DNA of 64,000 bases from Frondihabitans sp. 762G35 (lineage in GTDB: Bacteria > Actinomycetota > Actinomycetes > Actinomycetales > Microbacteriaceae). This document shows positions 11,060 through 20,065 of this stretch, piece by piece (the stretch's first letter is position 1; each line of letters begins with the position of its first letter). The translations under genes and the position numbers were made by a program. Location: contig NZ_CP014619.1 in NCBI RefSeq assembly GCF_002074055.1, forward strand, positions 62,001 to 126,000. Direction: 5' to 3'. A model generated the notes under the pieces. That model was given only the letters and a program-made list of their open reading frames with translations, was not told the origin of the DNA and did no database searches.

Positions 11060-11114
11060 GAGACTCCACGACTCGCCGCTCATGTTCACGCGGAGCAGGA
11101 AATCGTGGAGTCTC
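11060..11114 (+). repeat. Family A dispersed repeat, copy 4
   Basis: Conserved ends and left core (GACTCGCCGCTCA). The right inner part differs (AGCAGGAAATCGTGGAG). It lies 14 bp beyond the stop codon of the next gene, on that gene's 3' side. Confidence 0.9.
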
Positions 11115-17546: not shown

Positions 17547-17568
17547 CGGGCGCTGCGCCCGCCCTCGG

Positions 17569-17604
17569 CTCCGCCTCGCTCCGCCTCGCTCCGCCTCGCT
17601 CCGC
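17569..17604. repeat. CTCCGCCTCG decamer array
   Basis: Three perfect head-to-tail copies and a partial fourth of CTCCGCCTCG lie directly before family A copy 5, upstream of the reverse transcriptase gene. Confidence 0.85.
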
Positions 17605-17605
17605 C

Positions 17606-17660
17606 GAGACTCCACGACTCGCCACTCACTTTTCGCGCGAGGCGTCATTCGTGGAGTCTC
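17606..17660 (+). repeat. Family A dispersed repeat, copy 5
   Basis: Conserved ends and core; the right inner part is GGCGTCATTCGTGGAGTC, as in copy 6. It lies 72 bp upstream of the reverse transcriptase start, where retrons usually carry their msr-msd RNA. Confidence 0.9.
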
Positions 17661-17720
17661 GCGGCGCCTGCGCGCAGGATGCCCGACCGATGTGGCCTGT
17701 CGCGCAGCACGTGCGTGGGC

Positions 17721-17726
17721 TACCGT
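17721..17726 (+). promoter_or_regulatory. -10 element TACCGT of the reverse transcriptase gene
   Basis: TACCGT ends 6 nt before the GTG at 17733, placing transcription start at the start codon (leaderless mRNA). This decided the start chosen. Confidence 0.5.
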
Positions 17727-17732
17727 GGCGAC

Positions 17733-19247
17733 GTGCGACGACTTCCGGACGAGGCGGACGGCGCAGGCTCTGCGCCGTCCTCTCCGGGGCTACCCCGGGG
17801 CACGGAGAACGACCAGGAACACGCACCGCAGGAGCCAGACCGCGCGGAGCGCGGTCCAGCACCCGCACCGATGGACGAGTCGTCCGGAAGTCGTCGCTCG
17901 CACCTCGTGACCCGGCCGGGTCCGCCACCGGCCCCGGACGTCGCCACCGCGCTCGCCGGAGCATTCCTCGCGGCGGAGGAGTGGTCGGCGCCGAGTCTCC
18001 GTGAGGCGGCCGCGGCGTGTCTCGGATCGCGACGACGTTTCGTCGGACCGGTGGTCACGGCGGTTCTCACGGCGCATCTTCGGGCTCCCCGCGACGCGCC
18101 CCGGGAGCTGGCCGCCCTCATCCTGCGCGTCGACGGCTTCGAGGACACCGTCCGGCGGGCGTCGCGCCGACGCCCTGTGCGGATCGCGCAGCTCTCGCCG
18201 ACGACCACCGTCTCCCGCGTCGCGGACGAGCGCCGACCCCGCGTCGACACGGTGGCCGACCTCGCCCGGCTCCTGGGGACCGACGTCGGTCACCTCGACT
18301 GGTTCGCCGATACGAAGCTGTGGAATCGTCGTGCACCCGCCGGTCCGCTCCACCACTACCGCTACGAGTGGCGGCAGCGGCCGGGCCGTGTTCCCCGGCT
18401 CCTGGAGGTGCCGGGACTCCGGCTTCGTGAGATCCAGCGGACGGTCCTCGACGAGCTGCTCGCGCCCCTCCCGCTGCACGACGCCGCGCACGGGTTCGTC
18501 GCCGGGCGGGGCGCCCGCAGCGGAGCGGCCCTCCACACCGGCCGGGAGGTCGTGATCGCCCTCGACCTCGTGTCGTTCTTCGCCCGAGTGGACGGTCGTC
18601 GGATCTACTCCGTGCTGCGCCAGGCGGGCCTGCCGGAGCCGGTCGCGCACTCGGCGACGGGCCTCGTGACGCACGCCGTGCCTCCTGCTGTCCTCTCCGC
18701 GATGCCCCCGGGGGGCACGTCGGACGAGCGGTTCGCGCTTCGGCGGGCGCTGGCCGTCCCGCATCTGCCCCAGGGCGCCCCGACGTCGCCGATGCTCGCG
18801 AACCTGGCCGTCCGGAGGCTCGACTCCCGGCTCGGCGGATACGCGCGGGCCGCCGGAGCGACCTACACGCGCTACGCGGACGACCTCGCCTTCAGCGGCG
18901 ACGCGGCTCTCGCCGGCCGGGTCGACGCGTTCGTGCGCGGGGTCGGTCGGATCGTCTCGGACGAGGGGCACCGGCTGAATCACGCGAAGACGCGGGTTCG
19001 TCGGCGAGGGGTCCGGCAGACCGTCACCGGCATCGTCGTCAACGAGTCGACGACCATCGGACGGCGGGAGTACGACCGGCTGCGGGCGATCCTGCACAAC
19101 TGCGCGGCGTACGGACCGTCGTCGCAGAACCGGGCCGGGCACGCGGACTTCCGGGCTCACCTGCTCGGCCGCATCGGCTGGGTGGAGAGCCTCGACCCGG
19201 ATCGAGGGCGGCGGCTGAGAGCGGAGTTCGCGCGGATCGCCTGGTGA
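17733..19247 (+). CDS. Retron-like reverse transcriptase
   Basis: About 504 residues from GTG 17733 (ATG 17871 is the alternative). The RT core has AHGFVAGRG and the xAxxH-like GAALH seen in retron RTs, IALDLVSFF (first catalytic Asp), LPQGAPTSPMLANLAVRRLD, the active site YTRYADDLAFSG (near residue 381), and a VTGIVVNE motif typical of the retron thumb. The first ~230 residues are an extra helical region of unknown fold ending in a HYRYEW...R...R lead-in common to retron RTs. No intron or variable-repeat partner was seen. A retron role needs an msr-msd RNA, which is unproven here. It is convergent with an SRAP gene. Confidence 0.82.
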   Translation: MRRLPDEADGAGSAPSSPGLPRGTENDQEHAPQEPDRAERGPAPAPMDESSGSRRSHLVTRPGPPPAPDVATALAGAFLAAEEWSAPSLREAAAACLGSRRRFVGPVVTAVLTAHLRAPRDAPRELAALILRVDGFEDTVRRASRRRPVRIAQLSPTTTVSRVADERRPRVDTVADLARLLGTDVGHLDWFADTKLWNRRAPAGPLHHYRYEWRQRPGRVPRLLEVPGLRLREIQRTVLDELLAPLPLHDAAHGFVAGRGARSGAALHTGREVVIALDLVSFFARVDGRRIYSVLRQAGLPEPVAHSATGLVTHAVPPAVLSAMPPGGTSDERFALRRALAVPHLPQGAPTSPMLANLAVRRLDSRLGGYARAAGATYTRYADDLAFSGDAALAGRVDAFVRGVGRIVSDEGHRLNHAKTRVRRRGVRQTVTGIVVNESTTIGRREYDRLRAILHNCAAYGPSSQNRAGHADFRAHLLGRIGWVESLDPDRGRRLRAEFARIAW

Positions 19248-19272: not shown

Positions 19273-19956
19273 CTAGGGCAGCGGGTCGATCAGCTGCGGG
19301 CCGCGGTTGCGGACGCTGTTGACATCCTTCGACACCTCGAAGTGCGCCAGGCCGTGGGCCACCTCGAGCGACTCCTCGTCGAGGAGCGCGAGCGCGTCGT
19401 CGGGCACGAGGTCGCCGTCGAGCCAGGCGTCGTAGCCGGCGGGCGTCAGGCACGCGGGCATCCGGTCGTGGACCTCGCCCGGGGCGACGTGCGCGTCGCG
19501 GGTGATGATCGCGGTCGAGAGGATCCAGCGGTCGGGGTCGTCCTCCTCCTTCGCAGGATCGGGCCACGCCGTCACGATCCCGGCCATCGCCAGGGCGCCT
19601 CCGGGTTCGTGGATGAAGTGCGGCTGCTTCCCGTTCTCCGTCTCCGACCACTCGTAGTACCCCAGCGCGGGGATGACGCAGCGGCCGGAGGCGAACGCCT
19701 TCCGGAACATGCCGCTCGTCGCCACCGTCTCGATCCGGGCGTTGATGGGCTGCGGTCGTTTCTTCAGGTCGGGGTACCAGGGCGGGACGAAACCCCACCG
19801 GGGGGTGGCCAGCTCGCGCTCGCCGTGGCGCTCGCGGACGGCGGGGACGGGCGTCGTCGGGGCGACGTTGAAGTTGTCCGCGAGTTCCGGGAAGCCCTCG
19901 AGCAGGCTCGGCAGGAGATCGGACGTGGCCCGGGCAACGACGAAGCGACCGCACAT
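19273..19956 (-). CDS. SRAP domain protein (YedK/HMCES family)
   Basis: 227 residues from ATG 19956, chosen because it exposes Cys2 (MCGRF), the residue that forms the stable link to abasic sites in ssDNA. Other family marks are NVAPTTPVPAV, RWGFVPPWY, NARIET, CVIPALGYYEW and HDRMPACL with the active-site His. The protein shields abasic sites at replication forks in the cytosol. It lies tail to tail with the reverse transcriptase (25 bp apart), so the link is positional only. Confidence 0.93.
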   Translation of the reverse strand: MCGRFVVARATSDLLPSLLEGFPELADNFNVAPTTPVPAVRERHGERELATPRWGFVPPWYPDLKKRPQPINARIETVATSGMFRKAFASGRCVIPALGYYEWSETENGKQPHFIHEPGGALAMAGIVTAWPDPAKEEDDPDRWILSTAIITRDAHVAPGEVHDRMPACLTPAGYDAWLDGDLVPDDALALLDEESLEVAHGLAHFEVSKDVNSVRNRGPQLIDPLP

Positions 19957-20010
19957 GTCCCCATTGTGCTCGTCGGGCCGGGTGCGCGCGAGCGCCAGCA
20001 CGGCTCGCGC

Positions 20011-20065
20011 GAGACTCCACGACTCGCCACTCACTTTCGTCCGGAGGCGTCATTCGTGGAGTCTC
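20011..20065 (+). repeat. Family A dispersed repeat, copy 6
   Basis: Conserved ends and core with the GGCGTCATTCGTGG right part of copy 5. It is 28 bp from copy 7, which has the opposite orientation. Confidence 0.9.

What the first reader, a model, noticed from the sequence alone, without database searches (positions are those of the whole stretch)
17547..19247. Retron-like reverse transcriptase with a long N-terminal extension and a family A repeat where the ncRNA should be
The RT has the retron landmarks (HGFV.G, xAxxH, QG...SP, YADD, VTG). The ~190 bp upstream hold a decamer array, one family A hairpin and a leaderless promoter, but no obvious classical msr-msd. An RT next to a dispersed palindrome raises the idea that the repeats are templates or products of this enzyme, or that copy 5 is part of its ncRNA. 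The ~230-residue N-terminal extension has no recognised domain.
Basis: partly seen in the sequence, partly recalled or inferred. Interest (0 to 1): 0.68.

Follow-up and report, generated by a model that had tools for sequence, protein, structure and literature searches.

The report
Retron with a translated template RNA
This is a real retron, a bacterial reverse transcriptase with its own RNA template.

Summary
The reverse transcriptase (RT) is real and is a retron RT. A classical msr-msd lies at 17730-17901: 21-nt a1/a2 arms, 127 nt apart, around two msr hairpins and one msd hairpin. It sits inside the first 76 codons of the called ORF. Homologues keep it with massive covariation (33 of 48 pairs compensated; 481 double-change cells against 120 in shuffles). 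In 398 genomes of the family it occurs in exactly the 46 that carry the close RT. It is found next to 74 of 80 RTs from many phyla. Rfam has no match. The true N-terminal extension is ~103 residues, with no fold match. No neighbouring gene is conserved, so no separate effector was found. Family A is confined to this genome (170 hits, against 0-3 elsewhere), although 45 other genomes carry the RT. The unexpected part: in actinobacteria the transcript apparently starts at a1 with an ATG/GTG codon, and that frame is open through the msr-msd. It then runs in frame into the RT, as here, or ends in an RTGA overlap with the RT start. So the "non-coding" template appears to be translated; this is inferred, not shown.

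The parts
17721..17726 (+). -10 promoter element TACCGT, 6 nt upstream of the GTG at 17733; TANNNT at this place in nearly all homologues
   Evidence: TANNNT (mostly TAGCGT/TAGGGT) immediately upstream of a1 in nearly all loci across phyla
17730..17901 (+). retron ncRNA (a1 - msr - msd - a2)
   Evidence: model R1 match 163 bits, E 3e-34; z -4.5 on its own; R1 found next to 74 of 80 distant RTs; the window locus was one of the 11 sequences used to build R1
17732..17752 (+). a1 arm
   Evidence: 21 nt, 95% complementary to 17880-17900, 127 nt between arms; 127-nt spacing also in most homologues where a scan found the arms
17753..17753 (+). candidate branching (priming) guanosine: first unpaired base after a1, an invariant G in the first 11 homologues
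   Evidence: alignment A1; assignment by analogy with known retrons, inferred
17756..17780 (+). msr stem-loop 1
   Evidence: helices 2-4: 8 of 9 pairs with changes on both sides
17782..17800 (+). msr stem-loop 2 (CUCCGGGG-CUA-CCCCGGGG), nearly invariant in sequence
   Evidence: helix 5
17801..17879 (+). msd region, predicted template of an RT-DNA of roughly 75 nt, with its hairpin at 17828-17866
   Evidence: helices 6 and 7; extent of the RT-DNA inferred
17880..17900 (+). a2 arm
17733..19247 (+). leaderless ORF starting at the GTG in a1, open through the whole msr-msd and in frame with the RT (504 aa)
   Evidence: same arrangement in 21 of 102 loci, RTGA-overlap arrangement in 26
17907..19247 (+). 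RT gene from the alternative internal GTG just after a2 (446 aa)
   Evidence: sequence; PADLOC RT_outgroup profile aligns from residue 86 of the 522-aa call, about 17934 onward
17931..18170 (+). N-terminal helical domain (five helices), the true extension
   Evidence: AlphaFold2 models, pLDDT 90 and 86; no Foldseek match with E <= 0.001
18219..19244 (+). retron RT core; YADD at 18873-18884, VTG at 19023-19031
   Evidence: Z 25.9 to the Ec86 RT, model residues 96-445
17605..17661 (.). family A hairpin: neighbouring genomic repeat, NOT part of the retron

Best explanation
The locus is a compact retron: one structured RNA (17730-17901, a1-msr-msd-a2) and one RT with a ~103-residue helical N-terminal domain. 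By analogy with known retrons, the RT recognises the msr hairpins and primes from a guanosine just after a1. It would then copy the msd into a branched RT-DNA of roughly 75 nt. No conserved separate effector gene was found; if there is an effector, the N-terminal domain is the best candidate. In the actinobacterial branch, including this genome, the template RNA is also the 5' end of a leaderless mRNA. Transcription starts at a1, the first codon is the ATG/GTG in a1, and ribosomes read through msr-msd. They then continue in frame into the RT (this genome, Curtobacterium) or terminate on an RTGA that is also the RT start codon (translational coupling). A single RNA molecule would therefore serve as RT message or as template but not easily as both, which gives built-in negative feedback. 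Shown by sequence: the RNA structure, its strict co-occurrence with the RT, the retron fold, the open leader frame and the stop/start overlaps. Inferred: the transcription start, actual translation, RT-DNA synthesis, feedback, and a role in phage defence. Confidence is about 0.93 for the retron and its ncRNA, about 0.6 for translation through it.
For: Inverted repeat and fold. Covariation: 29 of 48 pairs compensated in 11 sequences; in 54 sequences 95.9% of cells paired, 481 double-change cells against 120 +/- 11.5 shuffled and 74-117 with slid partners. Co-occurrence: RNA in 46 of 398 family genomes, exactly the 46 with the close RT (Fisher p 2e-61); only one further match in 385 phylum genomes. 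RNA upstream of 74 of 80 RTs from Actinomycetota, Acidobacteria, Planctomycetota, Proteobacteria and Myxococcota. Retron fold: the top 14 structures by VIA-align are retron RTs, Z 25.9. Leader ORF, in 47 non-redundant loci with TANNNT-N4-8-RTG: stop-free 39 in frame 0 against 24 and 18 in the other frames; 4-nt RTGA overlap with the RT start 21 against 2 and 0, at 18 different distances from a2 (-3 to +115). Several loci (L003, L006, L011, L013, L014, L015, L017, L019, L020, L022) have no ATG/GTG/TTG between the RNA and the conserved N-terminal domain. Natural control: in genus g45 six of seven genomes carry the RNA inverted; the five examined have lost the RTG, and four of these have a GGAGG-like sequence upstream of the RT start.
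Against: No RNA, ribosome-profiling or msDNA data. Base-paired G+C-rich RNA raises stop-free chance: without the RTG, 11-13 of 18 loci are stop-free in any frame. No third-position excess of variation in the leader frame, so the encoded peptide itself shows no sign of selection. One same-genus locus (L004) has a stop early in the leader ORF, and 17 loci with an RTG fit neither arrangement. Loci share ancestry, so the p-values are too small. In the window an internal GTG (17907) could serve as an ordinary start. Non-actinobacterial relatives mostly lack the RTG and start the RT just after a2, usually without a clear Shine-Dalgarno.
Confidence: 0.82

Rival explanations
1. Same retron, but the msr-msd is never translated: the RT starts at its own internal codon (GTG 17907 here), and the open leader frame and overlaps are by-products of G+C-rich sequence and compact gene spacing.
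For: In the window an in-frame GTG directly follows a2. No codon periodicity in the leader frame. Loci without the RTG are also often stop-free. Proteobacterial relatives start the RT just after a2.
Against: Frame 0 alone is enriched for openness, and RTGA overlaps (21 against 2 and 0) track the RT start at 18 spacings. Several loci have no other start codon before the conserved domain. The RTG is lost where the RNA is inverted.
Confidence: 0.25
2. The conserved RNA is only a cis-regulatory mRNA leader of the RT (attenuator or autoregulatory site), not a reverse-transcription template.
For: It lies directly upstream of the RT and in cis in most genomes.
Against: In six genomes of genus g45 it is on the opposite strand (shared palindromic -10 seen in the five examined), yet keeps the structure, so it acts as an RNA of its own. 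Its a1/a2 arms, msr hairpins and msd hairpin are the retron plan, and the RT is a retron RT.
Confidence: 0.06
3. One reading: the family A palindrome is part of the ncRNA, or the genome's family A copies are templates or products of this RT.
For: One family A copy lies 70 nt upstream of a1; about 170 copies in the genome.
Against: Family A is at background in all 45 other family genomes with the close RT and in the rest of the genus. The R1 model shows the RNA boundaries exclude it. The copy lies upstream of the -10 element.
Confidence: 0.02
4. The N-terminal helical domain is a built-in effector, making this a single-gene defence retron like the RT-Toprim, RT-TIR or RT-protease fusions (compatible with the best explanation).
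For: No conserved neighbour gene in 101 loci. Aligned N-terminal domain among relatives, one Trp invariant; confident helical fold.
Against: No fold or Pfam match and no recognisable catalytic motif. It may simply bind the RNA.
Confidence: 0.3

Closest known systems
Retron-Eco1 (Ec86) RT-msDNA complex, PDB 7v9x / 7v9u
   Same: RT fold (Z 25.9 over 302 residues); a1/a2 arms around msr and msd just upstream of the RT; VTG and xAxxH motifs
   Different: Ec86 has a separate effector gene and no 103-residue N-terminal domain; here no conserved effector gene, and in actinobacteria the template RNA appears to be translated
PADLOC RT_other (PDLC02949) and RT_outgroup (PDLC03740), retron RTs outside the numbered types; next RT_XIII (PDLC02956)
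   Same: RT_other and RT_outgroup are by far the best protein matches (588 and 552 bits; RT_XIII 270 bits)
   Different: These models describe only the protein; I found no held paper describing this clade's ncRNA. The paper that, to my knowledge, defines the 13 types (10.1093/nar/gkaa1149) is not in the library
Retron-Bth1 (PMC12548924)
   Same: a lone retron RT with an ncRNA and no obvious effector, unclassified, shown to make RT-DNA
   Different: from Bacillus thuringiensis, on an extrachromosomal element, RT interrupted by a group II intron; relation to this clade not tested
Leader-peptide and overlapping-gene translational coupling (reinitiation at leader genes, e.g. PMC4833913)
   Same: short upstream ORF whose stop overlaps the next start
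   Different: here the upstream ORF is the structured retron template itself

Membership tests
retron | retron-type RT (fold, YADD, VTG region Y, region X) | tested here: met
   region X reads G-A-x-x-H, not N-A-x-x-H, with invariant A and H (N is kept in only 62% of retron RTs per PMC4244168)
retron | ncRNA with complementary a1/a2 ends enclosing msr hairpins and an msd hairpin, next to the RT | tested here: met
retron | priming guanosine directly after a1 | tested here: inconclusive
   an invariant unpaired G follows a1 (G17753), but its 2' priming cannot be shown from sequence
retron | production of branched RT-DNA (msDNA) | not testable with these tools
   needs cells
retron | associated effector gene or fused effector domain | tested here: inconclusive
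   no conserved neighbour in 101 loci; window neighbours are housekeeping (MFS, SRAP, SDR and others); N-terminal domain of unknown fold
retron | phage defence | not testable with these tools
   needs cells and phages
numbered retron types I-XIII | best match to a numbered-type RT model plus that type's effector | tested here: not met
   RT_other and RT_outgroup score about twice the best numbered type, XIII; no type effector alongside
Rfam retron RNA families | match to an Rfam covariance model | tested here: not met
   no match at gathering score in the window and no meaningful match at E <= 5 in four diverse loci
REP/RAYT repeats (for family A) | a Y1_Tnp (RAYT) transposase in the genome | tested here: not met
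   PF01797 absent from all 7 genomes of the genus

The most novel reading that the evidence does not exclude
A retron template RNA that is itself an open reading frame: in Actinomycetota the msr-msd is a leaderless, translated leader (fused or stop/start-coupled to the RT), so that translating the RNA and reverse-transcribing it compete. This would be a self-limiting switch not described for any retron that I could find.
Probability: 0.6. Interest if true: 0.75.

Novelty: new variant of a known kind. Interest (0 to 1): 0.62.

Why it matters
It gives a precise ncRNA for a large, multi-phylum group of retron RTs (hundreds of relatives) that carry no numbered type, no known effector and no Rfam entry; these are ready candidates for RT-DNA tests and for retron editors in actinobacteria. 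If the template is translated, as the frame evidence suggests, then "non-coding RNA" is the wrong word for this branch, and RT dosage would be set by a contest between ribosome and RT on one molecule, which simple stop-codon mutants can test. It also warns annotators: the msr-msd sits inside the predicted protein.

Tried and rejected
Family A as template or ncRNA: rejected. Leaderless ATG at 17679: rejected, upstream of the promoter. RAYT as mover of family A: none found, so family A's mover stays unknown. Rfam: nothing. A conserved neighbour as effector: none among 101 loci by all-against-all blastp. N-terminal domain alone against PDB: no Foldseek match with E <= 0.001. Functional leader peptide: no codon-position signal, so only the act of translation, not the peptide, is proposed. 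The literature library lacks the type-defining paper, so earlier description of this clade's ncRNA cannot be excluded. One start-codon listing (the 'starts' columns) was computed out of frame and is not used.

Full report
1. Observation. The window lies in a 3.41-Mb, single-contig genome whose only RVT_1 match is this gene. The 522-aa ORF 17679-19247 holds a retron-type RT. Upstream are a decamer array (17568-17605) and a family A hairpin (17605-17661). It closes a fold of -109 kcal/mol (mean of shuffles -88, z -4.5) with two hairpins and a third, longer one: the a1-msr-msd-a2 plan of retrons. It lies inside the first 76 codons of the called ORF, so much of the apparent N-terminal extension of ~230 residues is template RNA read as protein, and part of the rest belongs to the RT core. 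The RT core starts near residue 104 of the 445-residue form.

2. The RNA is real. Homologous RTs were fetched from the same family. In eight of the other 29 loci scanned, a blind search found arms of different sequence with exactly 127 nt between them as the best repeat, and a few more had the same spacing or 126 nt (one of them with the RNA on the other strand). The alignment of 11 gave 29 of 48 pairs with compensated changes. A covariance model, R1, then found the RNA at 29 of 30 loci (the exception is cut by a contig end). On 54 sequences 95.9% of cells pair, 481 cells carry double changes (shuffles 120 +/- 11.5; slid partners 74-117) and the covariation score is 0.528 against 0.143. That alignment was fitted to the model, which leans towards the structure; the blind scan and A1 were not fitted to it.

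3. The RNA and the RT belong together. Over 398 family genomes the close RT (E < 1e-80) is in 46 (four further genomes have only a distant RT at about 1e-23 to 1e-28) and R1 matches exactly those 46. In 385 other genomes of the phylum there was one more match. A search of GTDB genomes with the RT alignment gave 80 loci out of at least 580 relatives; R1 matched upstream of the RT on the same strand in 74, across Actinomycetota, Acidobacteria, Planctomycetota, Proteobacteria and Myxococcota. Rfam has no match.

4. The protein. AlphaFold2 gives pLDDT 90. The best PDB matches are all retron RTs (Foldseek ranks 1-18; VIA-align Z 25.9 to Ec86 over 302 residues). PADLOC's unnumbered retron classes RT_other and RT_outgroup score 588 and 552 bits, against 270 for type XIII. 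The first ~103 residues form a helical domain; folded alone (pLDDT 86) it has no Foldseek match with E <= 0.001. Among 101 loci no other gene is conserved next to the RT; the window neighbours are an MFS transporter, an SRAP protein, a short-chain dehydrogenase and the like. So this is RNA plus RT, without a recognisable effector.

5. Family A is a bystander. The 20-mer core has 170 hits (up to 3 mismatches) in this genome and 0-3 in each of 397 others, like the reversed control. The six other genomes of the genus have 0-1 (up to 2 mismatches), though five carry the RT. No RAYT gene exists in the genus.

6. The template as an open reading frame. Nearly every locus has a TANNNT box right before a1, and in most actinobacteria an ATG or GTG follows it by 6-7 nt, within a1. 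Among 47 non-redundant loci with this arrangement the frame from that codon is stop-free to the end of the RNA in 39, against 24 and 18 for the other frames. With G+C >= 0.66 the counts are 33, 23 and 16 of 38, while 18 loci without the codon show 11, 12 and 13. The frame then does one of two things: it is in phase with the RT (11 of 47; this window, Curtobacterium, and others), or it ends in a TGA that overlaps the RT start as RTGA (21 of 47, against 2 and 0 for the other frames). The overlaps occur at 18 different distances from a2, so the stop moves with the RT start. Several in-phase loci have no ATG/GTG/TTG between the RNA and the conserved N-terminal domain. In genus g45, six of seven genomes carry the RNA inverted. 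In the five I read, the RNA lacks the start codon, it shares a palindromic -10 (AGCCTAGGCT) with the divergent RT, and in four of them the RT start has a GGAGG-like sequence before it. The seventh, with the RNA farther upstream in cis, also lacks the codon. There is no codon-position signal: the act of translation, not the peptide, would be what is kept.

7. Mechanism proposed. One transcript, 5' end at a1. If ribosomes load at the terminal start codon they unfold msr-msd and make RT; when RT binds the msr the same molecule becomes a template and is lost as a message. This predicts negative feedback. Steps shown by sequence: structure, co-occurrence, retron RT, open frame, overlaps, loss on inversion. 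Steps inferred: transcription start, translation, RT-DNA, feedback, defence.

8. Known or new. It is a retron by RT and RNA architecture; RT-DNA is untested. It is not a member of a numbered type by the tests here. Lone retron RTs without effector have been seen (Retron-Bth1, PMC12548924). I found no held paper on translated retron templates, but the library lacks key papers.

Noticed in passing
window 17605-17661, 11062-11112, 20013-20063 and about 170 places in the genome: Family A: a dispersed palindrome (GACTCCACGACTCGCCACTC...TCGTGGAGTC), often in short tandem or head-to-head groups with spacings of about 82-103 nt, confined to this one species among 398 family genomes; no RAYT gene in the genome. 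Mover and age unknown.
   Followed up: partly
L030, L132, L133, L134, L135 (genus g45): The retron RNA is inverted relative to the RT; both are divergently transcribed across a shared palindromic -10 element (CAGCCTAGGCTG), with a GGAGG-like sequence before the RT start in four of the five.
   Followed up: yes
L004 (same genus): The leader ORF is broken by an early stop (at -134 from the end of the RNA) while the RT is intact: a natural exception worth checking.
   Followed up: no
window 19276-20034 (-): An SRAP (HMCES/YedK-type) gene, whose family acts on abasic sites in single-stranded DNA, lies directly downstream of and convergent with the retron; not conserved next to other copies.
   Followed up: partly
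L096, L097, L104, L108, L109, L121, L127, L128 (Burkholderiales and relatives): The RT starts 10-15 nt after a2 with ATG and no recognisable Shine-Dalgarno, so how it is translated there is also unclear.
   Followed up: no
window 17568-17605: Tandem decamer GCTCCGCCTC repeats between the MFS gene and the family A copy; origin unknown.
   Followed up: no
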